IMG/VR virus record: IMGVR_UViG_3300045283_000349
Location: 1-64,000 of that record
Strand: one strand, 5' to 3'
Source of the DNA: a virus
DNA length: 64,000 nucleotides
Under the pieces are notes generated by a model. It saw only the letters and a list, made by a program, of their open reading frames with translations. It was not told the origin of the DNA and searched no databases. Made by a program: the position numbers and the translations under genes. Below, piece after piece: positions 24,683 to 62,134 of the stretch. The first letter of the stretch is position 1. Each line of letters opens with the position of its first letter.

Positions 24683-24913
24683 ATGTTGAACAAGCGTCTC
24701 ATCAAGGTGGGCCAGTCTCTCGCCCTCATCATCGACAAGCCGATCCTGGAACTCCTGGGCCTGAACGGCGAATCGGATCTGGAGATCACCACGGACGGCC
24801 GCGCGCTGAAGATCGTGCCCAAGGTTCGCCACGCGACCCGTGAGCAGCTGGAAGCGGCCATGCAGCAGGTCTTCACCGACCACGCCGAAACCTTCGCCAA
24901 GCTGGCCAAGTGA
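24683..24913 (+). CDS. AbrB/MazE-type antitoxin
   Basis: A 76-residue protein with an N-terminal SpoVT-AbrB swapped-hairpin domain (KRLIKVGQSLALIIDKPILELL, about 4-25) that binds DNA, and a helical C-terminus that likely wraps the toxin. It is followed by a Doc-type toxin with overlapping codons. Together they would keep the phage element in the cell population. Pairing of an AbrB antitoxin with Doc instead of Phd is a less usual combination. Confidence 0.8.
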   Translation: MLNKRLIKVGQSLALIIDKPILELLGLNGESDLEITTDGRALKIVPKVRHATREQLEAAMQQVFTDHAETFAKLAK

Positions 24914-25296
24914 TGACCGAGCCAGTCTTCCTCACGGTCGAAGACGTGGAGCTGATGCATGCGCGCGGCATCGCCCTTCATGGGGGCCAGCACGGCGTGC
25001 GCGATCGCGGGAGCCTCGAATCCGCGGTCGCCACGCCCCAGGCTGGCTTCGGCGGCGAGTACGCGCACCCCACGCTCTGGCTGATGGCCGCGGCGTACGC
25101 CTTCCACATCGCCGAAAACCAGGCCTTCCTCGACGGCAACAAGCGGGCCGGGCTGGCTGCCGCGCTCGCCTTTCTCAACGTCAACGGCCACCCGGTGCGA
25201 ACCACCACCGGCCTGTACGAGGCCATGATCGCGATCAGCGCGCGCAAGCTCGACAAGGTCGGGCTGGCCGCCCTGCTCGAATCGCTGGCCAGTTAG
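24913..25296 (+). CDS. doc: Doc-type toxin (Fic fold)
   Basis: A 127-residue Fic-fold protein. Its signature HIAENQAFLDGNKR near residues 65-79 is the Doc version of the Fic motif; Doc is known to phosphorylate and inactivate EF-Tu. The start is ATG 24913, sharing a base with the antitoxin stop (TGATG); a GTG one codon earlier is possible. Convergent with the next gene, stops overlapping by 4 bases. Confidence 0.87.
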   Translation: MTEPVFLTVEDVELMHARGIALHGGQHGVRDRGSLESAVATPQAGFGGEYAHPTLWLMAAAYAFHIAENQAFLDGNKRAGLAAALAFLNVNGHPVRTTTGLYEAMIAISARKLDKVGLAALLESLAS

Positions 25297-28873: not shown

Positions 28874-29413
28874 CTACGGCACCTCTTGTAGGTTGGAGGG
28901 CAAGATGTCGGGCCGCCAATCGATGGTCAGCTCGGAGTTTTCACCACCCTCGATCTCGGCCGTGCCGTAGATGATCGTGGTCGGATCCAAGGTGACCCGC
29001 ACCTTGTTGGCCTCGTTGCCGTCCTGGCCGCTGAAGTCGATGTCGGTGATGCGGCAGCCTCGGATCACATGGGTCGTCACACCCTCGGGCGCGGCCGTCT
29101 TGGTCGATGCCGACTCGTACATGAGCGGCTCGGCGAAGGCGACCTGGATGTCGAACGGGATGAGCCCGAAGCCGGGGCCCAACGTCTCGAGCAAGGCCTG
29201 AAACTCGTGTTGCAACATGTCGATGTCGCAGCGGTGATCGGCATCGCCCGGCGTCCGCCCCAGCTTCTCCGCGTCGGTGCCGCGGATGATCCCGGGCTTG
29301 AGGCTCGAGCCGTAGGCGATGCGGGTGATGCCGAGAAAGAGGCGGTTGTTCGCGGTCAGATCGATGCTCGCGAAGCTGTACCGGTGGCCGTTGATGAGCG
29401 CGCTGTCCGCCAT
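28874..29413 (-). CDS. tail tube-like protein, probable tube initiator
   Basis: A 179-residue protein. Its pattern (ING-YSFASIDL, GT-AEKLGRT, PFDIQVAFAEP, IRGCRITDIDF, KVRVTL) lines up along its whole length with the tail tube protein at 31857-32336, which has QGNFYSFASIE, GTRSQKLGTT, FPVVVQFAEA, LLGCRIVKADY and KVSLTL. A second tube-fold protein placed after the tape measure is expected to be the tube initiator sitting on the hub. Confidence 0.65.
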   Translation of the reverse strand: MADSALINGHRYSFASIDLTANNRLFLGITRIAYGSSLKPGIIRGTDAEKLGRTPGDADHRCDIDMLQHEFQALLETLGPGFGLIPFDIQVAFAEPLMYESASTKTAAPEGVTTHVIRGCRITDIDFSGQDGNEANKVRVTLDPTTIIYGTAEIEGGENSELTIDWRPDILPSNLQEVP

Positions 29414-36353: not shown

Positions 36354-37277
36354 CTAGACCGTGACCGCTCGGATCGCGGTGAAGGGCAGGCCGTAGCCGG
36401 CCGCACCGCGGGCGTCCGAGCCGAACTCGTACTCCTTGCGGTAGAACACGTTGTCGAGAGACGCGTCCGTCCGGGTGATGAAGTCCGGCTCCTTGCGGAC
36501 CTGCAGGATGATCGGCTTGAGCCGGGTCGTGCTGAGGAGGTAGTAAACCGTCGGCTCGTTTTCGAGCCGCGGAATCACCAGCACCTTCATCGGCCGGCCG
36601 CCCGCAATGCCCGCCAGCAGCGGGTTCGGGATGGCGGCGTTGTTGGACGCGACGACCGGCGCCATCGCCGTGGCAGCGTCCAGCGCGAGCGAGGGGGGCA
36701 CCACGAGCAGGTCGGGGTAGATCTCCAACGACCGTCCCGACTCGCCCTTGAACGCCAGCATCTTGTTGGACAAGAAGGCCAGGTTCGTGGGGGTGATCGG
36801 CTTGGCCGTGAACAGGTTGGCGTACGTGCCAGCGCTGTCGTCGTCCAGGTTGATCGGGTGGTCGGTGTCGAAGAAGAACTGGCCGTCGAAGGCCGTGGTG
36901 GTCGAGCCCGCCTGCAAGCAGTCGAACACGAGGTTGTCCCACAGCGCCTTGGCCGCGTCGCCCAGCAGCTCGGCGTGCCGGCTGTAGATGCCGAACTGAT
37001 CGTCTTCGATCTTGTTCCGTGAAACGGTGAAGCCGTCCTCCCAGTCCTTGTTGACGATCGAGTAGGCGCGGCTTGCCAGGTTGTGGAAGACCCGGGGGCC
37101 GATCCATTCCCGGAAGCCCGGGATCTCGGCCAGCCACGCGTACGTGTTCGACTCGGTCGTCGACGGCAACCGTTCGGCCAACTGCGGCCAGAAGATCGTC
37201 CGGTTGGCGAGGCCGAGGTCGAAGTCATTGTGGAACTGCGTGAAGAGGAAATTGAGCGATGCCGGTGTGATCTGCAT
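36354..37277 (-). CDS. major capsid protein (Mu gpT-like)
   Basis: A 307-residue HK97-fold coat protein of the Mu gpT family (length in Mu is about 305). The start (ITPASLNFLFTQFHNDF) and the segments FREWIGPRVFHNLASRAYSI and NKIEDDQFGIYSRH are family-typical. It builds the head from an assembly core made by the scaffold gene upstream. No cleaved N-terminal arm is evident. Confidence 0.9.
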   Translation of the reverse strand: MQITPASLNFLFTQFHNDFDLGLANRTIFWPQLAERLPSTTESNTYAWLAEIPGFREWIGPRVFHNLASRAYSIVNKDWEDGFTVSRNKIEDDQFGIYSRHAELLGDAAKALWDNLVFDCLQAGSTTTAFDGQFFFDTDHPINLDDDSAGTYANLFTAKPITPTNLAFLSNKMLAFKGESGRSLEIYPDLLVVPPSLALDAATAMAPVVASNNAAIPNPLLAGIAGGRPMKVLVIPRLENEPTVYYLLSTTRLKPIILQVRKEPDFITRTDASLDNVFYRKEYEFGSDARGAAGYGLPFTAIRAVTV

Positions 37278-37729: not shown

Positions 37730-38368
37730 TCACTTCCCCTGCGCGGCAGCGTCGCGGCCGCAGACCTTTGCGATGTGGGCCTCGAGCGGATCGGGCATGC
37801 CGCCGCCTTCGACGTTCGGCGGCTTGAGGCCGCCCGGCGGGATGGCCACCTTGAGCGACAGGCAGGTCCGCAAAAACGCGATCCCGTCGTGGGTGATGCG
37901 CCCGCCGTTGAGCTTGAGCGCGTCCGCCTTGAGCTTGGTCCGGTCCGCCGGGGAGAGGCCCTTCGCGCTGGCCTCGTTGAGGACGCCCTCGAACTCGCCG
38001 CTGAGCTTCTCGTTTTCCAGCTCGGTGACCCGCGCCGAGAGCCGCTCGACCTCGCCGTGCGAGGCTTTCCAGGAGTGGATTTTTCCGATCGCCACCGCAT
38101 CGCTGTCAGCGCCGGTGAGGCCGCGGACGTTGCTGCGGAACGTGGACAGGGCGGTGACCGCCGCGGTCCGATCGGGAGCGCCGGCCGTTGCACCCAGCGA
38201 CAGCACTGCGGTCAACGTCTTGACCTCTTCGACGGCTGTCTGGCCATCGCCCGCGGCCGTTGACAGCTTCGCCGTCAGGTCGGCGTTGGTTGCCTCCAGC
38301 GCAGTCAGTTTTGCGGTGAGCTGCTCGTGCGCGGCCTGCAGCTCCTTGTAGAGCTTCTCGTAATCCAT
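37730..38368 (-). CDS. internal-start scaffold protein (Mu gpZ-like)
   Basis: An in-frame internal ATG (residue 166 of the protease gene, MDYEKLYKELQ) is preceded by GAGGAGGGG at a good distance. It would yield a 212-residue, coiled-coil scaffold on its own, as Mu does with gpI/gpZ. Supported by the ribosome-binding site and by the domain border at this point. Confidence 0.6.
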   Translation of the reverse strand: MDYEKLYKELQAAHEQLTAKLTALEATNADLTAKLSTAAGDGQTAVEEVKTLTAVLSLGATAGAPDRTAAVTALSTFRSNVRGLTGADSDAVAIGKIHSWKASHGEVERLSARVTELENEKLSGEFEGVLNEASAKGLSPADRTKLKADALKLNGGRITHDGIAFLRTCLSLKVAIPPGGLKPPNVEGGGMPDPLEAHIAKVCGRDAAAQGK

Positions 38369-38863
38369 GCTGGTCCCCTCCTCTGTTCCGGTCGTTTGTC
38401 TCCGCGAGGCCGCGACGAGCGGCGCGATCCCGCGCATGGCGGGGATATTCGTAAGCGCGAGGTTGAGGACCTCCTTGATGCGGCCCTCGTCGGTGTGTGA
38501 AAAAGCCGGCGAGAAGTAGCGGTACTCGCCCGACGACAGGTAGCCCGCGGCGCGGTCGGTCCACTTGCACTCGGTGGCCCACAGCTCGCCGTTTCGGATC
38601 TGCGGCACCCAGCTCATGCACGACGCCGGCGCCTCGATGGGCGGCTCGGTGAGCGCCTGGTGCTCGTAGTCCATGGTCAGGTCGACCTTGCGGCGCCCGT
38701 ACGACTCCATCACCGTGCGGGCCGCTTCCTCGTCGAACGTGAAGTCGCCCTTCTCCGTCTCGTTCACGCCGGCCCGGAAGATCCGGAACTCCGACGGCGG
38801 CACACGCAGCTCGAGCCCGACGAGGGCGTCGAACATCGTGGGCGCGGCGTAGAGCGGATTCAC
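37730..38863 (-). CDS. capsid protease and scaffold precursor (Mu gpI-like)
   Basis: A 377-residue protein from GTG 38863, a start supported by an M1 motif 41 nt upstream; ATG 38836 is the alternative. The first 150 residues (FRIFRAGVNETEKGDFTF, VDLTMDYEHQALTEPP, YFSPAFSHTDEGR) match the Mu gpI head maturation protease, with likely catalytic His in DYEHQ. Residues 166-377 form a coiled-coil scaffold. The protease probably cuts the scaffold after head assembly. Confidence 0.85.
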   Translation of the reverse strand: MNPLYAAPTMFDALVGLELRVPPSEFRIFRAGVNETEKGDFTFDEEAARTVMESYGRRKVDLTMDYEHQALTEPPIEAPASCMSWVPQIRNGELWATECKWTDRAAGYLSSGEYRYFSPAFSHTDEGRIKEVLNLALTNIPAMRGIAPLVAASRRQTTGTEEGTSMDYEKLYKELQAAHEQLTAKLTALEATNADLTAKLSTAAGDGQTAVEEVKTLTAVLSLGATAGAPDRTAAVTALSTFRSNVRGLTGADSDAVAIGKIHSWKASHGEVERLSARVTELENEKLSGEFEGVLNEASAKGLSPADRTKLKADALKLNGGRITHDGIAFLRTCLSLKVAIPPGGLKPPNVEGGGMPDPLEAHIAKVCGRDAAAQGK

Positions 38864-43960: not shown

Positions 43961-44006
43961 TGGGCGGGATCCTTTGAAGAGGGGGTTTTGATAGGGGGTG
44001 GGTGGG

Positions 44007-44920: not shown

Positions 44921-44933
44921 CCTCAAGGTTTCA
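44921..44933 (-). promoter_or_regulatory. M1 motif copy 5 (divergent form)
   Basis: TGAAACCTTGAGG on the minus strand; the first base differs from the other copies. It is 33 nt before the leader ATG and 77 nt before the fibre ATG, overlapping the end of the gpF-like gene by three bases. This copy breaks the 42-nt spacing rule. Confidence 0.45.
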
Positions 44934-45644
44934 GCCCCCGTTCTTGAGCCGCTCCTCCAACGTGTCGCGTATCTCCTCGGGGTAGTCCTGCAGGTCCGGC
45001 TCCCAGTCAGGGCCATCGATGGGCGGCGGGGACCCGAAGCCTTCGTCGGGCTCGCTGTCGGGCGGCTCGTCGTCGATCCCCTCGTCCGCAGCCTCGTCCG
45101 CCGATAGCGGCGTGACCACCGAGCGGCAATTGAAGTGCAGCGGCGGCGTGCGGTTCTCCCAGGCCGGGTCATCCGCAGCCAGGACGGTGCCATCGTTGTC
45201 GTGGCAGACCTCGGTCTGCGCGTCATCGTCGATCCCATCAAAGCGCAGGTAGGGCCGGAACTGCCGGACCGACGGGGCCGAGATCACGGCATGGCGGCCG
45301 CCGTTGTAGGCAGTGAGCAGGTTGGTCCGGAAGATGGTCTCGAGCCGCCCGGGCTTGTCGGCCCCCCAGTGATCGACAAGCTTGGCCCCGGCGTCTGCCT
45401 TGAAGGTCTCGAAGGTCGTCCCCTGCTCGATCGCGGAGGCCAGGCCGTCGAACACCTCGGTGATGATGTCGGCCAGCGCGACCTCCGAGACGGTGAAGGC
45501 GAACTGCTTTTGCCCCTCGTTGAGCTTGTCCCACTCCTCGCGTTTCATTGGTACGCGGGCGCGGAATTTCTGGATCGCCTCGGTGAACTGGTTGGGGTCC
45601 GCAGGGATCCCGTCTTCGGCGCCGCCCCCTCCGCGCTTCGGCAT
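44931..45644 (-). CDS. gpF-like minor head protein
   Basis: A 237-residue protein of the Mu gpF / phage head morphogenesis family (PF04233). The helical core and the PPLHFNCRSVV motif near residue 165 are family hallmarks; the C-terminus is acidic and proline-rich. It is needed to build the head vertex with the portal, which is encoded just upstream. Confidence 0.85.
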   Translation of the reverse strand: MPKRGGGGAEDGIPADPNQFTEAIQKFRARVPMKREEWDKLNEGQKQFAFTVSEVALADIITEVFDGLASAIEQGTTFETFKADAGAKLVDHWGADKPGRLETIFRTNLLTAYNGGRHAVISAPSVRQFRPYLRFDGIDDDAQTEVCHDNDGTVLAADDPAWENRTPPLHFNCRSVVTPLSADEAADEGIDDEPPDSEPDEGFGSPPPIDGPDWEPDLQDYPEEIRDTLEERLKNGG

Positions 45645-45651: not shown

Positions 45652-47697
45652 TCAGAGTTCCTCGAGCACGCCGAGGCGGCCCGCCATGTGGGCCATGATC
45701 TGCGCCCGCTCGACCACGCGCCGGAGCGCCGTTGCGTCGGCGCCCTTGTAGCGCCGGGTGAGGCGCGCCCTCAGATCGGCGGGGCTTGTGGCCTTGTCGA
45801 CGTCCTCGAGAATGCCCGCGAGGTCCTGCTTGAGCGCCTGGGCGGCCCGCCGCTTGGCCGCCTTCTTGAGGGCATCGGCATACTTGGCGGTCCGCTTGTG
45901 GCCCGCCACCCCGGGACCTGGTGCCCCGCTGAGTCGTTCGATTTGCTCGTCGGGGTCCTGTTGACCTAGCGCCGTGGCTGTTGAAATGACTAGTTTGGCA
46001 AGGCCACTCTTCACACCTGGCGGCGTCGCCGCGCCGTCGGCCGGCAACTGCGGGGGCTCCTTACCATCGGCCGGCAGCTGCGGCGGCGCTGCTGCTTGAT
46101 CCCCTGCCCCGCTGGCCCCGTCCCCTGGCCCCGTCCCCGCCTCAGCCTGCGCCGCCGTGGCAACCGTGGCGGCATGTTTGGCCTGGAACTCGGCCACGGT
46201 CAAATCCCCATCGGGATTGCGGCCGCCGCCTTCGCCCTCGAGCGGTCCCATCCCGGCGGCCGCGCGCGCCTCGTTCACGGTCACGATCGCGCCCAGCGCG
46301 GACGGGGTCAGCGCCACGCGGCCACCGGCGCCTGGTGTCGCGCCCTCGTCCAGCTCGGCTGCGGCAAGCAGCGGGATTCCCCAGATGGCAGCGATGGCGT
46401 CCGTGTCGATCTCGAGGCCAGCCAGCTGCAGCGCCGTGACGGCCACGCCCACCGCCTCGAGCGTCTGCGCCTCTTTCAGCTCGTCCTCGGGCTCCTCCAC
46501 TACGTAGCGCGCCCGCGGCGCCAGCGCCGGATCGCCATAGTTGCGCTCGGCCCAGTGGGTGAGCCCCTGCTTTTGCAGGGTGTCCGCGATCACCGCGTCC
46601 TCGAGAAGCTTGGTGAAAGCGACGCCGGCGTGGACATCGGCGGCAGCGCGTGAGCCTCCCTGCACCTCGGTGGTGAGGTTCTGGCCCAGGACTGTCACCG
46701 CGATGTTGACCTCGATCTTGCCGATCAGCCGCTCGAAGCCCTCCTCGCTGCGGCCCATGGGCTCGACGATGCTGAACTTGTATCTTGGCGCGTCCTTGTC
46801 GCCGGTCACGGGCAGGAACAACGCGGTCTCGGATCCCCGATTGGCGACGTCCTGCATGACCTTCTGCTTTTCGTCGTCGGGCGCGTTGTCCGGCACCTCG
46901 AGCACGTCGGCGGGCATGCCGTGCTTTTCGCTGTAGCGGGACCAGTCGCGGTATGCCCACTGCCGGCACAGGTACAGCATAGCCAGCGGGCGCAGCATGG
47001 CGCGCCGCCAAGGCGATCGGAACCCGTACGGCATGTAGATGATCCACTTGCCATCACTGCGGGCATTCTCCTCGGTCGAGGGCAGATCGATGAGGCCCTC
47101 CATGGTCCGCAGCTGGTAGATGCCCTTCTGGTAATTCCAGCGCAGGAACTGCGGGTGCCACACGCGCGTGGTGAAGGTCGAGAAGGTCGGATCGCTGTAG
47201 TCCCACATGATCTCGGCTACGCCGATGCCGAGAAGGCGACCCCAGTGCAGCAGCTCGGAGACCACGTCTTTGGGGAACATGGTCGACCACAGCCCGGGCT
47301 CGTCGTCGCTGCCCTGGATCAGCTCGGCGATCTTTTTGGCCTTGAGCTTGGGCTTGACCGTCGATGCCTTGATCGCCAGATCGGAGGCCACGAGCGCGCC
47401 CCAGCGCGTGGAAGTCGTGCCGCTGATCCGGTCATCCCTCAACATGGCGTCGGCCAGCTTGGCGGCGTCCTCGAAGGACGTGCCCTCCTCGAAGGTCCTC
47501 AACACCGACTTGATTTGGCCCACACGGTCCAGTTCGAGGAAGCCAGCCACCGGGGGCATCTGCTGCAGAGTCCCCGCGCGGATGGTTTCACGGGCGGGCG
47601 GCCGGGCCTTCAGGACGGTGACCGCCGCGCCATCACGGGCGGTCCCTGTGGCCACCACGGCCAACTTCCCTCGCTGCCTGTTCCTGCGCTTGGACAC
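45652..47697 (-). CDS. portal protein (DUF935, Mu gp29-like)
   Basis: A 681-residue protein. Start GTG 47697 is preferred because M1 lies 42 nt upstream, as for other operons; ATG 47709 and TTG 47733 are in frame too. The DUF935 portal core runs over about 50-470, with segments such as WHPQFLRWNYQKG, MPYGFRSPWRRAM and VLGQNLTTEVQGGS. A long Ala/Pro-rich linker and a helical C-terminal end (KKAAKRRAAQALKQDL) follow. It forms the DNA entry ring. Confidence 0.87.
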   Translation of the reverse strand: MSKRRNRQRGKLAVVATGTARDGAAVTVLKARPPARETIRAGTLQQMPPVAGFLELDRVGQIKSVLRTFEEGTSFEDAAKLADAMLRDDRISGTTSTRWGALVASDLAIKASTVKPKLKAKKIAELIQGSDDEPGLWSTMFPKDVVSELLHWGRLLGIGVAEIMWDYSDPTFSTFTTRVWHPQFLRWNYQKGIYQLRTMEGLIDLPSTEENARSDGKWIIYMPYGFRSPWRRAMLRPLAMLYLCRQWAYRDWSRYSEKHGMPADVLEVPDNAPDDEKQKVMQDVANRGSETALFLPVTGDKDAPRYKFSIVEPMGRSEEGFERLIGKIEVNIAVTVLGQNLTTEVQGGSRAAADVHAGVAFTKLLEDAVIADTLQKQGLTHWAERNYGDPALAPRARYVVEEPEDELKEAQTLEAVGVAVTALQLAGLEIDTDAIAAIWGIPLLAAAELDEGATPGAGGRVALTPSALGAIVTVNEARAAAGMGPLEGEGGGRNPDGDLTVAEFQAKHAATVATAAQAEAGTGPGDGASGAGDQAAAPPQLPADGKEPPQLPADGAATPPGVKSGLAKLVISTATALGQQDPDEQIERLSGAPGPGVAGHKRTAKYADALKKAAKRRAAQALKQDLAGILEDVDKATSPADLRARLTRRYKGADATALRRVVERAQIMAHMAGRLGVLEEL

Positions 47698-47727
47698 CGT
47701 TGCCAGCATGCCGACATGGCCACGGGC

Positions 47728-47762
47728 CCTCAACGTTTCGTGGACCTATTGATTTGTTGGCT
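47728..47762 (-). promoter_or_regulatory. M2 array (3 octamers) joined to M1 motif copy 6
   Basis: Minus strand units AGCCAACA, AATCAATA and GGTCCACG run into AAACGTTGAGG; M1 here has one mismatch (G for C). The M1 G is 42 nt before the GTG 47697 start of the portal gene. Confidence 0.6.
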
Positions 47763-47800: not shown

Positions 47801-49204
47801 TTAGATGCGCCGGGGGGCGTGCACCGTGGGCAGGGGCCTACCGACTCGTGGTGCCGAGCCACTCAACATGAGGTGGGTTAGGGCCCAGACGTTGGCATCG
47901 AGCCGGTCGGGACTCTTGCGGGCCAACAGCGGGTTCCACGTGGTCATCTGGTCCTCGAGCCTTGCATGCACACCGACGTGGTGCACCTCGCCCTTCTCGT
48001 AGAGCGTCGCGATCGGCTCGGCGCGGATGGCTTTGCCTCGCGATGCCGTGACGGCCTGGTAGGCCACGGGCCGGTCGCGCGCGTAGGCCCGCAGGGTCGA
48101 TCCCACCAGGGCGCCACCGTTGTTGACCTCGGCGATGATCTTGTCCATCTGCTGATCGTGGTAGGCGTCGACCGCGATTTTCGCCCACTCCTCGGGCTGG
48201 TAGTAGCCCGACAGGTCGCCCAGCACGAAGCCGTGCATGCCCTCCTTGTTCTGGCAGATGCAGCGGCCGACGCCCGCGTAGACGATGCCGGTCTCGGCGG
48301 TGAAGATCTCGGTCTCGGCGGCACGCTTGCGATCGGCCTCGTCGGCCGTGGCTGGATCGATCGCCAGCACCATGCGCAGCAGATCGAAGGGCGGCACGAC
48401 CACGCGCGACTTTTCGATCGTCGACATCTTGAACATGGCGCCCGGCGTGTCGCCGAGTAGCTCGCCGCGGATCTCCTGCTGGCCAAGGCGCGTGCCCTCG
48501 AATTCGTCGCGGATCGCCTCGAAGAACTTGCGGTCGAGGTTCTTGGCATTGTCGTAGGTGCTGCCGCCCTGGACGATGCTGCCCGGGTTGATGACGAGCT
48601 GGCGGATCAGAGCCGTGGGCCGCGGGGTCATCGTGATCACCATCTGGGGGCTGTCGCCCCGCGGGCCGGTGATGCGGAGGGCGAGCCGGATCAGCTTCCA
48701 GGTCATCTCGGCATTTCGCCAAGACCCGAGCTCGTCGGCCCAGAGGTAGTCGTGGTTGCCACCGCGGGCACGCTCGGGCTCCTCGGAGCTGTAGAGATGG
48801 GCCACGGCGCCGTTGGGCCAGTGCAGCTCGCGGTCCTTGGCGATCCAGGTTGGCCGATCAATTTCCGGCGTGATGGCCAGGATCCCGCTCGGTCCCTCGA
48901 TCATCAGCTTGCGGCCGTCGCCGAGGGTGGGGGCAACCAGCGCGATGTTGCGCCGCCGGCCCTGGGCGACCTGGGCGCGCACCGTCTGCGCACCGGTCAT
49001 CGTCTTGCCCCAGCCGCGGCCGGCCTTGATGATCCAATAATCCCAGTCCTTCCTCGCCAGCGCCGCGCCCGGCTCGCCAGGCGGGATCTGCTCGGGCCGC
49101 GCCATCGAGGTCCAGTCATAGGCGTTGACGGCGCGCCGGTGGGCGGCCTGCCGTTCGGAAAGGATGCTCGCAACGAGCCGGAGGCGGGCAGCGAAGGCGG
49201 TCAC
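47801..49204 (-). CDS. terminase large subunit
   Basis: A 467-residue packaging motor from GTG 49204. Walker A is GRGWGKT (62-68), Walker B is YLWADE with Asp157-Glu158, and a nuclease domain occupies the C-terminal half (IDPATADEADRK region, with Asp residues near 290). It is of the Mu gp28/TerL type and would cut and package DNA into the head through the portal encoded next. It overlaps the sigma-like gene by 4 bases. Confidence 0.92.
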   Translation of the reverse strand: MTAFAARLRLVASILSERQAAHRRAVNAYDWTSMARPEQIPPGEPGAALARKDWDYWIIKAGRGWGKTMTGAQTVRAQVAQGRRRNIALVAPTLGDGRKLMIEGPSGILAITPEIDRPTWIAKDRELHWPNGAVAHLYSSEEPERARGGNHDYLWADELGSWRNAEMTWKLIRLALRITGPRGDSPQMVITMTPRPTALIRQLVINPGSIVQGGSTYDNAKNLDRKFFEAIRDEFEGTRLGQQEIRGELLGDTPGAMFKMSTIEKSRVVVPPFDLLRMVLAIDPATADEADRKRAAETEIFTAETGIVYAGVGRCICQNKEGMHGFVLGDLSGYYQPEEWAKIAVDAYHDQQMDKIIAEVNNGGALVGSTLRAYARDRPVAYQAVTASRGKAIRAEPIATLYEKGEVHHVGVHARLEDQMTTWNPLLARKSPDRLDANVWALTHLMLSGSAPRVGRPLPTVHAPRRI

Positions 49205-50066: not shown

Positions 50067-51899
50067 TCAACCCCGGCCCCCGGCTGCGGTTGGCTGGGTC
50101 TTCGCCTCAAGGCGCTCCACGCGGCCGCCCAGGCGCTGCAGGCGCTGCAGAAGCTCGAGGGCGGGGTCTGGCGCCGCGGGCGCGGGCTGGCCGACCAGGC
50201 GCAAGCCAACGACGCCGGCGCCGGGGGCGTCCGTGAAGCGCGGGGGCCATGCCCCGGCCGGGATGTGGGCGCGGCGGGGTGGGGCGGGCGGCGGCAGCGG
50301 CGCGGCGGGGGCTGGCGCGGGCGGCGCCTGGGCCGCTAGGTACTCGCGCAGGATCCGCGGCAGCGGCTGGGCGGGGTAGGCGGCACGGAATTCGGTCACC
50401 CGCTGGGCCATGACCGCGTTGACCACCGCGGCGATCGCGGGATCGGCCGGCGCGTGATACCCGAGGCCGGCGCAGTTGCGGTCCTTGCGGAAGTCGGTCC
50501 AGTCGAGTGCCCGCTGCCGGGCAGCCTCCTCGCGGCTGGGCGCGGCTGCGCGTTCGGCGCGCTCGGCCTCGATGGCGCGGGCTGTGCGCGCCGACGATGC
50601 GGCCAGAGCTTTTGCGCGCGCCTGCTTGTCGCGCTCGCGCCGCTCGGCCTCGAAATCGCGGGGCGCGCCGCGCGCCGCTGGCTTCTCGGCCTCTGGGTTT
50701 GCGGGCTTTGGGTCGGACCACTGGCGCTTGTGGAGGTAGCGCTCGAAGTAGGGGACGCCGATGCCGTCCGCCCAATGTGTGGGGACCTTCCAGGCGAGGT
50801 GTTCCATCACGCGGTCGAACAGCACCTGCTCGCCCAGCTCGGCGGCCAGCGCCAGCCAGACCCCGTGGGCTTGGATCTTGGTGCCGCGGTGGTTCGGGTA
50901 GGCCGAGAAGGCGGTCTCGAACCGGGCCGGAAAGCCGGAAGCCGGCATTGGCACGGCCGCTGGCATCCGCGGCTCCCGGGTGTGCCGCCGCCGGACGGAC
51001 GCATGGGCGGCTCGGCGGGTCTCGGCTGGGTCCCGGCCTGAAAAAAGCTCGGCCTGACCCCCCCCCGTCCCCGGGGGGTTAGGGGGGATCTGATCTTCAG
51101 ATCGTTCGTTCGTTCGATCCCCCGAACGAGAAGTGAATGGTTGCGCGGGGTTAACCGACTTCTCAGTGGGACGTCGGTGGGACGTCAGTGGGACGTCAGT
51201 GGGACGTCGGTGGGACGTCAGTGGGGAATCGGCGGCCTCGTCTGCAGGCTGCGCGGGTTGGAAACGGGCGAAGTTTTTGATCTGCAGCCAGGTCGGCCCG
51301 GCGCTGGGGTGGGGCACCAAATAGCCGTCTGCCAACAGTTCGCCGACCCAGCCGGCGAGCAGGCCGCGCTCGCGGATATGACGCTCGCCGCCCCAGGCCA
51401 AGCGCTGCATGATCTGGTCGGGATCGGCGTCGATCTCCCCGTCGTCGCCGGCGATGCGCAACAGCTGGTGCGCGAAGGCCTTGGTCATCATGGGCAGACG
51501 AGCGAACGAGGGCGACTCGTGGACGAAGCAGATGCGGAAGGCCCGGTGTGTGCGAATTCCGCCACCCCATCCCATGGCCGCTATTTCACTCCACGTGGGA
51601 ATTTCCAGGCATCCGTCCGTTAGGACGATGAGCCCCGCGGCTTCGAGGCGCGCCAGAGCGTTGCGGATGTAGCGATCGTCAACCTGGTTGACCCGACCGA
51701 GGACGCGGAACAGGTGGCGCTCGGCTTGCCGGAGCAGCGACAAGCTGGCTACGGCCGGAAAGTAGATGCGGCCCTTGTGGGCGTGCGCGGTCTTCTTCAT
51801 GAGGTCGAAGACCATTTGCGCGGTGGCGCCGATCTGCGCCTCTTTGCCGGTGGCCGCCCCCCGCTCGATGCGGATAAAGGGTAGGCGGTCATACCGCAT
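50067..51899 (-). CDS. replication initiator-like protein with internal repeat array
   Basis: A 610-residue protein starting MRYDRLPFIR with a GAGG ribosome-binding site. Residues 20-220 look like two winged helix units (FDLMKKTAHAHKG, FRVLGRVNQVDDRY, LIVLTDGCLEI; AFAHQLLRIAGDDGEID), as in phage and plasmid replication proteins. A low-complexity linker (225-300) encoded by tandem 11-bp repeats follows, then a helical part and an Arg/Ala-rich C-terminus. The repeats inside the gene recall lambda O and its origin. It probably recruits DnaB. Confidence 0.6.
   Translation of the reverse strand: MRYDRLPFIRIERGAATGKEAQIGATAQMVFDLMKKTAHAHKGRIYFPAVASLSLLRQAERHLFRVLGRVNQVDDRYIRNALARLEAAGLIVLTDGCLEIPTWSEIAAMGWGGGIRTHRAFRICFVHESPSFARLPMMTKAFAHQLLRIAGDDGEIDADPDQIMQRLAWGGERHIRERGLLAGWVGELLADGYLVPHPSAGPTWLQIKNFARFQPAQPADEAADSPLTSHRRPTDVPLTSHRRPTEKSVNPAQPFTSRSGDRTNERSEDQIPPNPPGTGGGQAELFSGRDPAETRRAAHASVRRRHTREPRMPAAVPMPASGFPARFETAFSAYPNHRGTKIQAHGVWLALAAELGEQVLFDRVMEHLAWKVPTHWADGIGVPYFERYLHKRQWSDPKPANPEAEKPAARGAPRDFEAERRERDKQARAKALAASSARTARAIEAERAERAAAPSREEAARQRALDWTDFRKDRNCAGLGYHAPADPAIAAVVNAVMAQRVTEFRAAYPAQPLPRILREYLAAQAPPAPAPAAPLPPPAPPRRAHIPAGAWPPRFTDAPGAGVVGLRLVGQPAPAAPDPALELLQRLQRLGGRVERLEAKTQPTAAGGRG
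51087..51103. repeat. inverted repeat beside the iteron array
   Basis: GATCTGA-TCT-TCAGATC, 7-bp arms, followed by three CGTT units. It lies 60 bases from the tandem repeats, within the same gene, and may be part of an origin. Confidence 0.45.
51166..51220. repeat. five tandem 11-bp repeats (iteron-like)
   Basis: Five copies of GTGGGACGTCR without gaps (the last base alternates G, A, A, G, A), then a partial copy. Each contains the palindrome GACGTC. As 11 is not a multiple of 3, the encoded protein repeats every 33 bp. The place within an initiator gene makes a replication origin likely. Confidence 0.65.
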
Positions 51900-52480
51900 G
51901 GACGGGCCTCGATGGCGCCACGCAACAAGCTAATGAAATTGCTTGCTTACGTGACAGTTCACAACCCGGAAAAATAATAATTCGGGCGAGGCTGTGGTAG
52001 CCTCTTTCGAGTTCACGGCGTCGGCGCATTGGAGTTCACGGCTCCTTGATTGGCTGGGGTGCTAGCCCCTGTTGAATGCACAGATGCCTGGGCCGCGAAC
52101 CCCTCGTCTCGTGCTTCAGGCTGGGCGGCCTGTCGCGCAAAAAAGGGACGAGGGGTTCGCGCCTGGTTCGTTGCGCTGATCCCCCCGTGCGGCCGGTCAG
52201 CACCGGCGCAGTGGTGGTAGTGTCGAGGAATCGGATCGCGATCGGCGGCGCCGCGTGGAACGTCTGAGATGCATGGCCGCCGGTCAGATGGCATCGATGC
52301 TGACTCCGAACCCCTACCGGGGCTGGTCTATTAGCACAACAGGTGAGAGTGGCTCTATTCGAGCCGTTTCCCCGATTGCGCTACGGTTGGCGCGAGAGGT
52401 TCATCCCGCCGCCGCATCGTCAAGCAAGGTCGCTGACGAGATCAACGTCAAAGCGTTCCCGCTGAAAAAAGACGACGGTG
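51900..52480. other. gene-free region of about 580 bp
   Basis: No convincing gene on either strand. It holds the AT-rich upstream region of the replication gene (51930-51990), a direct repeat GAGTTCACGGC (52009-52019 and 52032-52042), the large inverted repeat described separately, and a small one GGCTC/GAGCC near 52350. It may be an origin-linked, partition or regulatory RNA region. Confidence 0.5.
52094..52161. repeat. 15-bp perfect inverted repeat around a nested hairpin
   Basis: CGCGAACCCCTCGTC (52094-52108) and its exact reverse complement (52147-52161) flank 38 bases that contain a second hairpin CAGGC/GCCTG and a run of A. The structure could be an RNA hairpin, a terminator, or a protein-binding site such as a parS or att-like element. 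Confidence 0.55.
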
Positions 52481-52846
52481 TCAGCGCCGCGTCTGGGTCT
52501 TGTTGCGCCTGGCTACCCAGGCCCGGGCCTCCTTTTCGTGATCGAGCCAAAAGTCGAGTGCGTCGCGCAACACCGCGCTGAGATCGAACTTGTTGGTGTA
52601 GCCGAGCTGCTTGCGCTCCCAGGCGTGGTTGTCGAGCGCCTTGCGGTGTCGGTCGGCGATCGAGAAGGACGTGTAGATCTTCGCCGGCATCGGCTCGAGC
52701 TCGGCGCCGTCAGCGGGAGCGGCCTCTTTGCGGGCGCGCTTGGCCCGCGCGCCGGTCGACCCCAGGATGAAGTCGGGCTCGGTTGCTCGCTTGGCCGCAG
52801 CGGCCCCCACGGTCTCTGCCATCTGCTCTGCCGATCGCTTTGCCAC
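52481..52846 (-). CDS. partition-associated DNA-binding protein (ParB-like role)
   Basis: A 121-residue protein from GTG 52846, with AAAGGG at good spacing. The basic N-terminus and the C-terminal helix-rich region (SFSIADRHRKALDNHAW to AVLRDALDFWLDHEK) look like a small ribbon-helix-helix-type centromere-binding protein such as those paired with plasmid ParA. It follows parA directly. The fold is not certain. Confidence 0.5.
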   Translation of the reverse strand: MAKRSAEQMAETVGAAAAKRATEPDFILGSTGARAKRARKEAAPADGAELEPMPAKIYTSFSIADRHRKALDNHAWERKQLGYTNKFDLSAVLRDALDFWLDHEKEARAWVARRNKTQTRR

Positions 52847-52856
52847 GCGCACCCTT

Positions 52857-53621
52857 TCAGCGGCTCGCAAGCCGCGCCTTCGTCTCTTTCAAAATCGCCG
52901 TGTAGTCCTCGGCCCCGCGCGGGTCGGCGCCGTGGTCGAAGGCCACCGCGCCGGTCTCTGGCAGCTTCTTGCCCGCGGTCGACAGCCGGACCTCCGCATT
53001 GAACAGGCGGGCCGCGCCCAGCTGGCGGACGCTGGCCCGGGTCCCCTCGGTCACGCCTTCCCGATCATCGCCGCCGAAGATGACCGCGCCGGTGATATCC
53101 ACCTTCACGCGCGCGCGGGCGCGGATCTGGTCGACCAGCTTGCGGATGTCGACCAGGCCGTTGATGCCCATAAAACCAGGCAACACCGGCACAAGGACGC
53201 TATCCGAGGCGAAGATCGCGGACTGGGTCAGGAAGGCCACCCCGGGCGGGCAGTCGAACACCACGAGATCGAAGACCTTGCGGTGTGGCTTGAGGATCTC
53301 GCGCAGCACGGTCTCGCGACCGAAGGTCTGCGACAGCGTCGCCTCCACGGTCTGCAGGCCGTTCGAGGCTCGCGCCATGTAGAGACCGGGCCGGGCCTCG
53401 ATGTGGTCGATGTGCTCCTGCTCGAGGGCGCCTTGCACCATGGCCTCGGCGATCCCCTTGGGCGCGCGGCCCCCCAGCAGCCAGGTGCTGGCGTGGGCCC
53501 CGTGGTCGAGGTCGGCCAGCAGCACGCGCTCGCCTGCGGCGGCGGCGCCGGCGGCGATGTGCACAGCGAGCGATGTCTTGCCGACCCCGCCCTTGCCGCT
53601 GGCCACCGCGATCGAGCGCAT
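52857..53621 (-). CDS. parA: ParA-family partition ATPase
   Basis: A 254-residue Walker-type ATPase. Deviant Walker A KGGVGKTS starts near residue 10, Walker A' region VLLADLDHGAHAS near 36, Walker B FDLVVFDCPPGV near 125. Such proteins move plasmids or chromosomes by forming gradients on the nucleoid. Start ATG 53621 shares a base with the stop upstream. The presence of parA with a small basic partner in a phage genome signals low-copy plasmid maintenance, as in P1. Confidence 0.85.
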   Translation of the reverse strand: MRSIAVASGKGGVGKTSLAVHIAAGAAAAGERVLLADLDHGAHASTWLLGGRAPKGIAEAMVQGALEQEHIDHIEARPGLYMARASNGLQTVEATLSQTFGRETVLREILKPHRKVFDLVVFDCPPGVAFLTQSAIFASDSVLVPVLPGFMGINGLVDIRKLVDQIRARARVKVDITGAVIFGGDDREGVTEGTRASVRQLGAARLFNAEVRLSTAGKKLPETGAVAFDHGADPRGAEDYTAILKETKARLASR

Positions 53622-53842
53622 CACTCGTCCTTGGCTTTGGCCGCTCTGGGCCCTTTGCGTCTCTCGGCGGCGAATCGCTCGACATCGGCTCGCTTCATGA
53701 ACCGGGTGCCCCGGGTCGTCAACATGCAGGGCAAAACGCCGTTGTCGCAGAAGTCGCGGACGGTCTCGGCCGACACCATCAGGATGTGCGAGGCGTCCGT
53801 GGTTCCGACGATCTCCTCCTGGTCAGGCTTCTTCTTTGGCAT
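53621..53842 (-). CDS. helix-turn-helix regulator of the partition operon
   Basis: A 73-residue protein starting MPKKKPDQEE with a MerR/excisionase-type helix-turn-helix (LMVSAETVRDFCDNGVLP, about 21-40; FMKRADVERFAAE). It is the first gene of the parA operon and would bind the inverted repeat upstream. It is related in type to the 81-residue protein at 14013. Confidence 0.65.
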   Translation of the reverse strand: MPKKKPDQEEIVGTTDASHILMVSAETVRDFCDNGVLPCMLTTRGTRFMKRADVERFAAERRKGPRAAKAKDE

Positions 53843-53870
53843 GGCCGGCAAGGCAGCTCTCCTGTGGTGA

Positions 53871-53903
53871 GGGGTTGGTTCCAATGGTTGAGAAACCCCA
53901 ACC
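53871..53903. promoter_or_regulatory. inverted repeat ahead of the partition operon
   Basis: GGGGTTGG (53871-53878) and CCCCAACC (53896-53903), separated by 17 bases, 29 bases upstream of ATG 53842. Likely operator or partition site. Confidence 0.5.
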
Positions 53904-53955
53904 AAGGTGCTGCGAGATTTGATCCGCTGCGGCCCGGAGTCAACTTTTCTTCTGC

Positions 53956-53968
53956 CGAAACCTTGAGG
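53956..53968 (+). promoter_or_regulatory. M1 motif copy 7
   Basis: CGAAACCTTGAGG on the plus strand; its G is 43 nt before ATG 54000. No Shine-Dalgarno follows. Probable promoter of the 54.0-57.3 kb operon. Confidence 0.6.
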
Positions 53969-53999
53969 GTGGCCCAGGCCGCGCCGCACGATGGGCCGC

Positions 54000-54410
54000 A
54001 TGCGAACCCCTCAAGCAACGCTCCGCACCCTGCTGGCCCTGGTGGTTCTCTGGTTGGCGCCGCTGGCGCTGGTCCCGGCCTGCAAGACCACGGGCATCGG
54101 CGGCGTCGGCGCGAAAATCGTTGACTGCGCCGAGAAGGCCATCCGCGACAAGGCCATGACCTACCTCGGGAAGGTCAACGACATCCTGAGCAACACGGGC
54201 GTGACCGACCAGACGGCCGAGTCCCGGCTGATCGACCTCGGGGTCGAGGCGGGCGAGGACGTGATCGGCTGCCTGCTGACGGACCAGGCGCCGAAATTCG
54301 CCGAGGCCGCGGCGGGCAACCCGACCGATCAGGTGGCCAAGGCGGCGGCGAAGAGATCGCAGACCCGGCTCGAGGAGCTACAGGCCGCCGGCTGGCGCTT
54401 CACCAAATGA
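54000..54410 (+). CDS. small lipoprotein
   Basis: A 136-residue protein. ATG 54000 fits the M1 spacing better than ATG 53991. A hydrophobic signal ends in LVPAC (Cys28). The mature part is helical with two further cysteines. It could be an outer spanin-like, superinfection-exclusion or host-altering lipoprotein. Confidence 0.65.
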   Translation: MRTPQATLRTLLALVVLWLAPLALVPACKTTGIGGVGAKIVDCAEKAIRDKAMTYLGKVNDILSNTGVTDQTAESRLIDLGVEAGEDVIGCLLTDQAPKFAEAAAGNPTDQVAKAAAKRSQTRLEELQAAGWRFTK

Positions 54411-59830: not shown

Positions 59831-60084
59831 GACCGGCCTCCCCGTATCGGCGGCCGGATCTCTCCCGGCTTGCGCAGCTTTTTCAGCAGCTCCTCGAGCG
59901 CCTCGATCATCGATGCGCGCTGGGCGTTCGACACGTAGGTCGCCCAGCCGTCGTTGCCGAATTCGAACAGCCACACGACGAAACCGATGCCCTGGGGCAG
60001 GTCGTCGCCGATGGCGTGCCCCAGCTTGCGAGCCTGGGCCTCGAGCTTGGCCAGGGCAGCGATGCGGGCTGGATCGTCGCTCAC
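59827..60084 (-). CDS. hypothetical protein
   Basis: An 85-residue protein from GTG 60084 (GTGA overlap). Short helices around a beta strand (GFVVWLFEFGNDGWATYV). No family is recognised. Confidence 0.6.
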   Translation of the reverse strand: MSDDPARIAALAKLEAQARKLGHAIGDDLPQGIGFVVWLFEFGNDGWATYVSNAQRASMIEALEELLKKLRKPGEIRPPIRGGRS

Positions 60085-61820
60085 TGCGCCAGCTCCGGGT
60101 GAATGCGCAGCTTGCCGCCGTCCCGCAAGAACAGCCCCGCGCCGACCAGCTCGCCCACGTAGGCCTTCCAGGTCCCGCCCGTGATCGTCATGGGCTCGTC
60201 CCCATCCTTGGAGCGCGAGCGGTTGACCGCATCGTTGAGCACCTGCGGCGTCGCCTCGTGGTTTACCGCCAGCTCCAGCAGGATGTCGACCGTCCCCTTG
60301 CGGAACTTGGACGCCCACTCGTCGAGGATCTCACTGCGGTTCAAGGTGGCGCGGGGCACCTCAAGGGCGACCCCAGCCGGGGTCAGGCCGAGCTTGCCGT
60401 CCTCGCGGTCGACGTAGCAGCCGCCGACCAGCTCGCCGATGTACGCCTTGAATGTGCCGCCCGTGACCGTCATCACGGCCAGCACCGCCAGGTCGGCCGG
60501 GGCCACGCGCGCCGGGTGGTGCTGCTGAAGGATCGAGACGAGGCGCAGGACGCCCGCGCGCAGACGCTTGCCGCTGGCGCCGTTGGGCTGCGGCGACTTG
60601 CCGCCCACGATGCCAAGGCGGGCCGCCGACCCTGGGGGCGGCCCTTTGAGGATCACGGTGGCGGTGCTGCTGACCTGCGCGGGGAATCGCCGGGCCTTGA
60701 GGTCGCTCTGCAAGAGCTCGAATTCTCCGACGACCCTGCGCATGACGTCCAGGACCTCGCCCAGCGTCTCGCTGATCGACTCGACCCGGGCAAACACCGC
60801 GGGCGGGATCGGTGGCGGCGGCGGCGGCGCCGGGGGCCTCGCCATGCCCACCGCCGCCTTGAGCTTCCGCACCTCGGCCTTGAGCGCGTCGACGTCGTTG
60901 GCGGCGATCTCGGTCTCGACCGAGGCTAGCGCCGCGCGCACCTCATCGAGATCGATCGGCGGCAGCTTGCGCGTGGTCTCGCCCGCGCGCCCACCCGTGG
61001 GTGTGGCGCTGGCGTCGTAGGTCTCCTTGCGCAGGATCTTGTGCCTGCCGAAGGACCCCAGCCACTGCGGCGACCACACCAGCGCCGTGCCGGGCTTCAG
61101 GCTGGGCAGATCGTTGGCGATCTCGCGATCGCCCGCGCCGGTCTCCTGCACCCATCCCGTGATGGCCTTGCGCTCCTGGGGCCCGGTCAGCTGGAACGCC
61201 AGCATCACCTCGGCCTGGTTGAGGACGTCCTTGTTGACGGCCTGGGGCCGCTGCGAGATGAGCGAGCAGCCCACGCCGTAGTTGCGCCCGAGCTTGATCA
61301 GGCGCTCGACCGCGCCGACCATCTTGGCCATCTCGGGCCGGACCAGCTGGGGCACGAATTCCTGCGCCTCCTCGAACACGATGTGCAGGGGCGAGCGCGA
61401 GCGCTTCTTGGCGTGGAACAGCTCGAGGCAGAACTCTCCAACGAACTTGCGCTGTTCAGCCCCGGTCATCTCCGAGACGTCGAGGACCATCGACGTCGAG
61501 CGGGTGACCACCATCTCGGCGAAGACTTTGCCCGCGGTGGGCGGCAGCGGCAGATCCCCGTGCGCCCCGCCGAACACCGGGACGTTGAGGCCCGAGGGCT
61601 TCTTGCCGTCGGCGGCGAAGCGCAGGCCCCACCACGTCCCGACCGGATCGATCACGACGACCTGGACGCCCACGCCGATCAGCAGCTCGGCCATGCGGCC
61701 CGCGCCGTAGGTCTTGCCTGAACCACGGCGGCCCATCCAGGCATAGACCTGCGTGGCCGCGGTCTCGGCGGGCAGGTCCAGGTCCTCGCCGAGGGCGAGC
61801 TTCCAGCCGGCGGCGGTCAT
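60081..61820 (-). CDS. HerA-like AAA+ ATPase with duplicated C-terminal winged helix
   Basis: A 579-residue protein. Walker A GRRGSGKT lies near 31-38 and VVVIDPVGTWWGL near 54; EEAQEFVPQL is a Walker B-like part, RNYGVGCSLISQRP carries a sensor Gln and an Arg. This is the HerA/FtsK-like DUF87 class of DNA pumps. Two similar C-terminal units (TGGTFKAYIGELVGG and TGGTWKAYVGELVGA) look like duplicated winged helices. No NurA nuclease is adjacent. It may move or unwind DNA or act in defence. Confidence 0.75.
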   Translation of the reverse strand: MTAAGWKLALGEDLDLPAETAATQVYAWMGRRGSGKTYGAGRMAELLIGVGVQVVVIDPVGTWWGLRFAADGKKPSGLNVPVFGGAHGDLPLPPTAGKVFAEMVVTRSTSMVLDVSEMTGAEQRKFVGEFCLELFHAKKRSRSPLHIVFEEAQEFVPQLVRPEMAKMVGAVERLIKLGRNYGVGCSLISQRPQAVNKDVLNQAEVMLAFQLTGPQERKAITGWVQETGAGDREIANDLPSLKPGTALVWSPQWLGSFGRHKILRKETYDASATPTGGRAGETTRKLPPIDLDEVRAALASVETEIAANDVDALKAEVRKLKAAVGMARPPAPPPPPPIPPAVFARVESISETLGEVLDVMRRVVGEFELLQSDLKARRFPAQVSSTATVILKGPPPGSAARLGIVGGKSPQPNGASGKRLRAGVLRLVSILQQHHPARVAPADLAVLAVMTVTGGTFKAYIGELVGGCYVDREDGKLGLTPAGVALEVPRATLNRSEILDEWASKFRKGTVDILLELAVNHEATPQVLNDAVNRSRSKDGDEPMTITGGTWKAYVGELVGAGLFLRDGGKLRIHPELAQ

Positions 61821-62134
61821 GGCGTGGCGGGCTCCGTGGCGTTGCACTCGGCGCACCCGCACCCAGGGATCCCAATACGGCGCCAATAGTCGTCGACGGG
61901 CAGCGCGCGGGCGGCCGCGATGGCCGATGTGAGCGCCTGGACGAAGCGCTCAGCGTGCTCTATCGACAGACTCCCCTGGAATGAGAGGCCCTGGGTTCTG
62001 GCCTCGAACACCACGCGGGCGGCGACGAGAGGCGCGGCATGCGGCGTGGTTCGAAAAGGAGAACGGGAAACGACGTTCAGATTTACACCATCGCCCTCAC
62101 CCGCATCGAACGAAGGGATCTCGGATCTGCCCAT
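61817..62134 (-). CDS. hypothetical protein
   Basis: A 105-residue protein with three close cysteines near the end (GCGCAEC). Mixed alpha-beta. ATGA overlap with the ATPase gene. No family is recognised. Confidence 0.6.
   Translation of the reverse strand: MGRSEIPSFDAGEGDGVNLNVVSRSPFRTTPHAAPLVAARVVFEARTQGLSFQGSLSIEHAERFVQALTSAIAAARALPVDDYWRRIGIPGCGCAECNATEPATP

What the first reader, a model, noticed from the sequence alone, without database searches (positions are those of the whole stretch)
50067..53903. Mu-like virion genes in a probable phage-plasmid
The head and tail genes are Mu-like, yet the window shows no MuA/MuB transposase or integrase. Instead there is a ParA operon with own regulator and palindrome, an initiator gene with iterons, and a Doc addiction module, as in P1-type prophages. 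This combination suggests a phage that lives as a circular low-copy plasmid.
Basis: partly seen in the sequence, partly recalled or inferred. Interest (0 to 1): 0.72.

Follow-up and report, generated by a model that had tools for sequence, protein, structure and literature searches.

The report
Likely phage-plasmid with Mu-like head
This is a complete, circularly assembled virus of bacteria that builds a Mu-type head but has no recognisable integration or transposition enzyme, carrying instead plasmid-style copying, sharing-out and addiction genes, so it most likely sits in its host as a small independent circle of DNA.

Summary
The core observation holds. The record (66,967 b) has a 127-b exact end overlap, i.e. 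a circular assembly of 66,840 bp. Its head genes are Mu-like (portal, gpF, protease I, capsid gpT). rve, PF00589, PF00239, MuA/MuB and divergent integrases are not found anywhere in it, including the 2,967 b outside the window. The 50-54 kb block holds a Soj-type ParA, an upstream HTH_17 gene, a small downstream probable RHH partner, a 581-bp origin-like gap, and a probable initiator with an 11-bp tandem array inside its gene. A Doc pair lies among the tail genes.

Corrections: tail and packaging are not Mu's (DUF2586 sheath, non-gp28 terminase). The closest isolate is Myxococcus phage Mx4. The par locus looks like type Ib, not P1's. Within one well-supported capsid clade (17 members, 0.99) I find a MuA-like transposase, tyrosine integrases, and this phage's ParA/initiator: one capsid lineage, different lifestyles.

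Best reading: a phage-plasmid, probably of a Myxococcota host (0.68). Episomal lysogeny is inferred, not shown: circular assembly does not prove a plasmid, no repressor was recognised, and the initiator rests on one weak profile match. New variant of a known kind.

The parts
50067..51899 (-). probable replication initiator, 610 aa (rep)
   Evidence: PHROG 270 'replication initiation protein' 9.6e-5 over residues 282-460; no Pfam/NCBIfam match; structure model of residues 1-216 useless, pLDDT 37
51163..51225 (.). 11-bp tandem array TCAGTGGGACG x5.7 inside the initiator gene (candidate iterons)
   Evidence: TRF score 112-126, 92-100% matches; codons about 224-245, between the N-terminal part and the PHROG-matched part
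51900..52480 (.). largest intergenic gap; candidate plasmid origin / centromere region
   Evidence: 581 bp, GC 0.61, lowest GC of the 13 gaps over 170 bp
51924..51983 (.). most AT-rich 60-mer of the record (39 of 60); holds its longest A/T run AAAAATAATAATT at 51970; candidate melting region
51955..52042 (-). two exact copies of GCCGTGAACTC 23 bp apart (52009, 52032) and one degenerate copy (51955); candidate iterons
52094..52161 (.). 15-bp perfect inverted repeat, 38-bp spacer, the longest of the record (spacer up to 150); candidate centromere or regulatory hairpin
   Evidence: 20 Markov controls: longest arm 14; RNA fold z -5.1
52481..52870 (-). small probable ribbon-helix-helix ParB/ParG-like partner, 129 aa, overlaps the parA end
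   Evidence: 33% identity over 73 aa to the ParA-adjacent protein of L244; ranked 1st of 72 window proteins by a hand-picked profile (E 2.5e-4), 2nd of 72 by an unselected one (E 0.12); no Pfam match; single-sequence model shows no strand
52857..53624 (-). ParA/Soj-type partition ATPase, 255 aa
   Evidence: AAA_31 1.8e-31; PHROG 164 6.5e-44; best solved relative, segregation protein 1wcv, 3.3e-24
53621..54001 (-). HTH_17 gene overlapping parA by 4 bp, probable operon regulator (true start may be further inside)
   Evidence: PF12728 1.4e-6; PHROG 66 'excisionase and transcriptional regulator' 4.1e-5
24683..24913 (+). putative antidote of the Doc pair, 76 aa
   Evidence: TIGR02609 3.9e-4; MazE PF04014 0.0014
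24910..25296 (+). Doc/Fic toxin, 128 aa
   Evidence: PF02661 5.1e-13; PHROG 577 Doc-like 1.4e-22
47801..49204 (-). large terminase, not of the Mu gp28 type
   Evidence: Terminase_6N/6C; 45% to Microcystis phage Mae-JY09; no similarity to Mu gp28
45652..47733 (-). Mu-type portal (gp29 family)
   Evidence: PF06074 1.3e-50
44931..45644 (-). Mu gpF-like minor head protein
   Evidence: PF04233 2.7e-13
37730..38863 (-). Mu I-like head protease/scaffold
   Evidence: PF10123 3.9e-37
36354..37277 (-). Mu gpT-like major capsid protein
   Evidence: PF10124 4.2e-68
32350..34008 (-). contractile tail sheath, DUF2586 family
   Evidence: PF10758 1e-38; 37% to Myxococcus phage Mx4
31857..32336 (-). tail tube-like protein
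   Evidence: PHROG 4579 1.4e-14
28874..29413 (-). second tube-like protein
   Evidence: matches Mx4 and MMP17 at the same place as the first tube-like protein
29418..31280 (-). tape measure protein
   Evidence: PHROG 4372 5.5e-6
22401..23861 (-). baseplate J-like protein
   Evidence: PHROG 6 1e-24
9024..10697 (+). DnaB-like replicative helicase
   Evidence: PHROG 19 1.5e-95
12930..14012 (-). YqaJ/RecE-like exonuclease
   Evidence: PF09588 8.6e-26; PHROG 434 1.1e-59
60081..61886 (-). HerA-like ATPase
   Evidence: PF05872 5.9e-5; 13 related viral loci

Best explanation
A tailed phage with a Mu-type capsid and a contractile, Mx4-like tail that is kept between infections as a circular low-copy plasmid. 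Shown from sequence: virion genes, a circular assembly, no recognised integrase or transposase, a ParA gene in an operon with a DNA-binding gene, a Doc pair. Inferred: the 610-aa protein binds the repeats at 51955-52042 (and/or the array inside its own gene), opens the AT-rich stretch next to its start and loads the phage's DnaB; ParA and the small RHH-like partner share the copies out through a site in the 581-bp gap; Doc kills cells that lose the circle; on induction the same circle is copied and cut into heads by a non-Mu terminase.
For: Circular assembly. No rve, PF00589 or PF00239 and no MuA/MuB/integrase similarity, with working controls. ParA, nearest to chromosome/plasmid segregation proteins. 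In 80 other viral contigs with a related ParA, 56 have a small ORF (55-200 aa) directly after it, 17 a larger one, 7 none; the closest ParA (42%, L244) has a partner 33% identical to this one over 73 aa. The longest gap, the most AT-rich 60-mer, the longest A/T run and the longest perfect inverted repeat of the record all fall in one 581-bp stretch directly before the initiator gene; that stretch is 9% of all intergenic bases. Doc pair. DnaB.
Against: A 127-b overlap equals a common assembler word length (recalled), so it shows a circular assembly graph, which headful-packaged linear virion DNA gives as well. The initiator rests on one weak profile match. No CI-like repressor or other lysogeny switch was recognised among the proteins scanned. 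The RHH assignment is suggestive only (rank 2 of 72, E 0.12, with the unselected profile; model without a strand). 0 of 50 ParA-bearing viral records tested carry a gpT capsid (many are fragments), so the combination has no second example here. No copy was found in phage or plasmid records with the 24 kb searched.
Confidence: 0.68

Rival explanations
1. A virulent or carrier-state phage: the circle exists only during replication or pseudolysogeny, and ParA/Doc are used to position, share or protect replicating phage DNA rather than for true lysogeny.
For: No lysogeny repressor recognised. Virion relative Mx4 is described as virulent, with latent infections and no lysogens recovered (PMC6070905, passages). 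The in-gene array resembles lytic origins of the lambda O kind (recalled).
Against: ParA with a partner and an addiction pair serve stable inheritance, which a lytic cycle does not need; a separate origin-like gap exists in addition to the in-gene array.
Confidence: 0.16
2. A temperate phage that integrates by a recombinase not recognised here, or by host enzymes.
For: Capsid-clade relatives carry tyrosine integrases (G009, G011, Mx4) or a MuA-like transposase (G004). Two related virion modules sit in a Deltaproteobacteria assembly, one of them on a contig with chromosomal genes. The HTH_17 gene matches an excisionase profile.
Against: Integrases from these very relatives find nothing in the record (best E 0.018), though the G011 and G009 ones find each other. 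The HTH_17 gene overlaps parA, not an integrase.
Confidence: 0.11
3. Chimeric assembly, or a plasmid that captured phage genes.
For: Single record; only one near-identical fragment elsewhere (L012, 8.5 kb, covering virion genes only).
Against: Even GC across the window (0.65-0.70 per 2 kb); the terminase gene lies one gene away from the initiator on the same strand; virion genes in relatives' order; exact circular overlap.
Confidence: 0.05

Closest known systems
Myxococcus phage Mx4 (OK085710, 57.0 kb; PMC8530038, text read except the end of the reference list)
   Same: Virion genes in the same order: portal 35%, gpF 40%, protease 32%, gpT 36%, neck, sheath 37%, tube, hub, baseplate; circular map; high GC; typed as Mu-like myovirus by its author.
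   Different: Has a tyrosine-integrase-family ORF (PF00589 6.4e-9), no AAA_31 ParA, no match to this phage's terminase, initiator, ParA or DnaB.
Phage-plasmids as a class (PMC12977533, passages; PMC4490671, abstract and plasmid-gene section)
   Same: Phage genes plus partition and addiction genes, typically no integrase; the glacial circular genomes with ParA/ParB and toxin-antitoxin were inferred the same way.
   Different: Here a Mu-type head with a DUF2586 tail; 'Mu-like' does not occur in the main text of the typing paper PMC12977533.
Mu and Mu-like transposable phages (Mu, Mushuvirus, D3112)
   Same: Portal, gpF, protease I, gpT families.
   Different: No MuA/MuB, no similarity to Mu gp28 or gpL; 67 kb instead of about 37 kb.
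pBH6::Phage BH9 (PMC6435834, passages) and Citrobacter plasmid p26019-1
   Same: Mu-like virion genes on a circular plasmid.
   Different: There a Mu-like prophage with its transposase has jumped into an ordinary plasmid.
Salinibacter phage M8CC-19
   Same: Mu-like gp29 and gpT without Mu transposition genes annotated in the 33 kb shown.
   Different: Tyrosine integrase annotated.
Meiothermus phage MMP17
   Same: gpF 47%, sheath 47%, portal 34%, baseplate; circular record; PF00589 and AAA_31 absent.
   Different: 33 kb; no ParA; gpT not matched; not searched for rve.

Membership tests
Phage-plasmid | virion and packaging genes | tested here: met
Phage-plasmid | no integrase or transposase | tested here: met
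   within profile sensitivity
Phage-plasmid | partition ATPase | tested here: met
Phage-plasmid | centromere-binding partner | tested here: inconclusive
Phage-plasmid | plasmid replication initiator and origin | tested here: inconclusive
   one weak PHROG match; origin-like gap; no functional test
Phage-plasmid | circular extrachromosomal form in the host | tested here: inconclusive
   circular assembly only
Phage-plasmid | lysogeny control (repressor) | tested here: inconclusive
   none recognised in the proteins scanned; Arc-like (62134-62367) and HTH_17 proteins present
Phage-plasmid | stable inheritance and infectious release shown | not testable with these tools
   needs a host
Transposable Mu-like phage | MuA/MuB | tested here: not met
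Transposable Mu-like phage | gp28-type terminase | tested here: not met
Transposable Mu-like phage | Mu-type portal, F, I, T head genes | tested here: met
Mx4-like virion lineage | same capsid clade and virion gene order | tested here: met
   (17 members, support 0.99)

The most novel reading that the evidence does not exclude
One capsid/tail lineage, seen with Mx4 and in a groundwater Deltaproteobacteria assembly, has been paired with three different ways of persisting - transposition, site-specific integration, and an autonomous plasmid with ParA and its own initiator - with a change of terminase alongside. This record would then be the first phage-plasmid with a Mu-type head, and the first of Myxococcota.
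Probability: 0.42. Interest if true: 0.62.

Novelty: new variant of a known kind. Interest (0 to 1): 0.45.

Why it matters
If true, it shows that the Mu-type head is not tied to replicative transposition and that a whole persistence module can be exchanged under a conserved virion, together with the packaging enzyme that must match the replication product. It would also offer a natural replicon and partition locus for Myxococcota, where autonomous plasmids are scarce (recalled). My library searches for phage-plasmid with Mu-like (11 papers), phage-plasmids with Myxococc (5) and ParA/phage-plasmid/Mu-like head (259 with at least 2 of 3 terms, 12 listed) showed no such case in titles and abstract starts; I opened only some of these papers.

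Tried and rejected
Near-DNA searches of 40-64 kb: no phage match, one 35-b plasmid match. Single-protein scans of viral contigs with portal, ParA and initiator found no relatives; the initiator finds none among phages at E 0.01. The HerA protein finds 13 loci, but they share almost nothing else: no AAA_31 in any of the 12 of their records tested, PF00589 in 6 of those 12. Structure models: partner pLDDT 66 without a strand; initiator N-part pLDDT 37, discarded; so no fold search was run. Rfam at gathering scores: none. Considered and rejected: Mu prophage inserted in a plasmid (no A/B genes; the Citrobacter case, shows how that looks). The ParB-like stretch outside the window next to the DNA methylase is not taken as the partition partner: it precedes a methyltransferase, as on contig C164. 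One tree only, of gpT, by FastTree; L012 left out as a copy of the same phage; 165 of the 166 sequences offered were used (MMP17 has no gpT hit).

Rows dropped: the partner profile used 13 proteins picked by eye from the 27 loci listed; the unselected repeat used 56 of 80 loci and gave a weaker result, reported above. One search printed only the 60 best of the loci.
Full report
WHAT THE RECORD IS. The window is bases 1-64000 of a virus record of 66,967 b. I fetched the remainder. The first and last 127 b are identical, so the assembly closes on itself at 66,840 bp. An overlap of exactly 127 b is the largest word length of a common assembler (recalled), so I read it as a circular assembly graph and not as a true terminal repeat. 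This fits a circular plasmid or circularly permuted virion DNA; it does not decide between them. No tRNA and no Rfam match in the window.

VIRION. Head genes are of the Mu families: portal, gpF, protease I and capsid gpT. The order is terminase, portal, F, [a block with collagen-like proteins], I, T, neck, sheath, tube, tape measure, second tube-like protein, hub, baseplate, on the minus strand (gene). The tail sheath is DUF2586, without similarity to Mu gpL in BLASTP. The large terminase has none to Mu gp28 and is closest (43-45%) to terminases of Mae-JY09, Desulfofustis phage LS06-2018-MD02 and ctuI7215. So 'Mu-like head and tail' should read 'Mu-like head, contractile tail of another family, non-Mu packaging'.

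NO INTEGRATION GENES. rve, PF00589 and PF00239 are absent from the whole record. MuA, MuB, Mushuvirus A and B, Mu Gin, and integrase or transposase ORFs from Salinibacter M8CC-19, Mx4, G011, G009 and G004 give nothing better than E 0.018 (G011 integrase against the collagen-like gene); in the same call the Salinibacter integrase finds those of G011, G009 and Mx4, and Mu A and B find Mushuvirus A and B. Most predicted proteins of 150 aa or more were also scanned against Pfam without a recombinase appearing.

REPLICATION AND PARTITION BLOCK. On the minus strand from 54.0 to 50.1 kb: an HTH_17 gene (53621-54001; PF12728 1.4e-6); parA (52857-53624; AAA_31 1.8e-31; best solved relative 1wcv, a segregation protein); a 129-aa gene overlapping parA by 14 bp (52481-52870); a 581-bp gap; the 610-aa gene (50067-51899; PHROG 270 'replication initiation protein', 9.6e-5). 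ParA has 255 residues and no added N-terminal domain, and the partner is small: the layout called type Ib (recalled), not that of P1.

THE SMALL PARTNER. Pfam, NCBIfam and PDB searches give nothing useful. Directly after parA, 56 of 80 have an ORF of 55-200 aa, 17 a larger one, 7 none. Ten of the small ones were scanned with Pfam: one matches ParG above its cut-off (L264), one RHH_1 above its cut-off (L263), the other eight nothing above a cut-off. A profile from 13 hand-picked small partners ranks the window's protein first of 72 proteins of 60-220 aa (E 2.5e-4; set size); an unselected profile from all 56 ranks it second (E 0.12), behind another RHH-like protein, 62134-62367. Profiles from random ORFs put it first in 2 of 20 trials and second in one, with E 0.14 to 1.8, so the unselected result alone is weak. 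The partner of the closest ParA (L244) is 33% identical over 73 aa (single-pair E-value 2e-6, composition correction off). The structure model, from a single sequence, shows helices only. I call it a probable RHH partner.

ORIGIN-LIKE GAP. The 581-bp gap is the longest of the record by my gene calls. It contains the most AT-rich 60-mer (39 of 60 at 51924) and the longest A/T run, 13 b at 51970, in a genome of about 68% GC; two exact copies of GCCGTGAACTC 23 bp apart and a degenerate third; and the longest perfect inverted repeat (15-bp arms, 38-bp spacer; 20 first-order Markov genomes reached at most 14), which folds at z -5.1 as RNA. The gap holds 9% of intergenic bases, so three extremes falling in it is unlikely by chance, though AT-rich stretches favour intergenic DNA and the measures are not independent. 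Inside the initiator gene lies a second array, 11 bp x 5.7. Because 11 is not a multiple of 3, successive copies are read in different frames, which points to a DNA-level repeat, as in phage initiator genes with internal origins (lambda O, recalled).

ADDICTION. A Doc/Fic toxin with a short putative antidote lies between tail genes at 24.7-25.3 kb.

RELATIVES AND LIFESTYLES. One, L012 (8.5 kb), is 97-99% identical over five virion genes: the same phage in another record. In a gpT tree of 165 sequences the window falls in a 17-member clade (support 0.99) with Mx4, L013-L017, L021, L030-L032, L039, L040, L042, L059, L092 and contig C164. Within it: rve in G004/L015; PF00589 in G009/L040 and G011/L059 and in Mx4; AAA_31 in none of the 11 virus records tested nor in Mx4, though most are fragments. 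The genome behind L092 has 15 PF00589 places, 13 over the cut-off; one lies on each contig with a virion module, about 19-20 kb (C164) and about 29 kb (C4, a partial match) from the module's nearest edge, so these two modules may or may not belong to integrase-bearing prophages. The window's position next to the gp28-terminase group L013-L016 has weak support (0.68). Only the window and L059 among the 165 carry the window's terminase type in the DNA held; for many loci the held DNA does not reach the terminase.

HOST. Not known. Pointers to Myxococcota: Mx4 as the closest isolate, two related virion modules in a Deltaproteobacteria assembly of about 9.6 Mb, GC about 68%.

LITERATURE. Phage-plasmids inferred from metagenomes with par and toxin-antitoxin genes are known (PMC4490671, abstract and one section); 4,395 phage-plasmid-like genomes were called from IMG/VR by a classifier (PMC13221032, abstract and two sections), so this record may be among them. 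Rhizobium siphophages with parA, parB and repC are called possible prophage-plasmids on the same kind of evidence (PMC12509600, passages). The two Mu-on-plasmid cases I looked at (PMC6435834, passages; Citrobacter plasmid p26019-1) are ordinary Mu-like insertions. Mx4 is described as virulent with latent infections and no lysogens recovered (PMC6070905, passages).

CONCLUSION. Phage-plasmid, confidence 0.68; carrier-state or virulent phage 0.16; integrating phage 0.11; artefact 0.05.

Noticed in passing
window 40187-44855 (-): Between the gpF-like and protease genes lie a 1021-aa protein with collagen-like triple-helix repeats, a second protein with a weak collagen match and an unassigned 235-aa protein; an unusual place for a fibre-like gene.
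   Followed up: no
L003 7500-8839 (record about 65.5-66.8 kb, outside the window): A ParB-like N-terminal stretch and a DNA methyltransferase lie in two overlapping frames where the relative on contig C164 has them in one ORF; a frame break, real or from assembly.
   Followed up: partly
Mx4, L229 2232-3608: Myxococcus phage Mx4, described as virulent, has a tyrosine-integrase-family ORF (PF00589 6.4e-9) annotated only as hypothetical protein.
   Followed up: partly
contig C164 of the genome behind L092 (L201-L203, L213), about 31.8-56.9 kb: A roughly 25-kb virion module of the same lineage sits among chromosomal genes, with no PF00589 match inside it (nearest at 12.7-13.2 kb); could be a decayed prophage or a domesticated particle.
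   Followed up: partly
window 60081-61886 (-): HerA-like ATPase with 13 relatives on otherwise mostly unrelated viral contigs; PF00589 was found in 6 of the 12 of their records tested.
   Followed up: partly
window 62134-62367 (-): Second RHH-like protein (HicB/Arc-like); candidate phage repressor.
   Followed up: no
window 23962-24600 (-): Putative lipoprotein with a DAG/GG-rich linker beside the Doc pair, a style recalled from Myxococcota.
   Followed up: no
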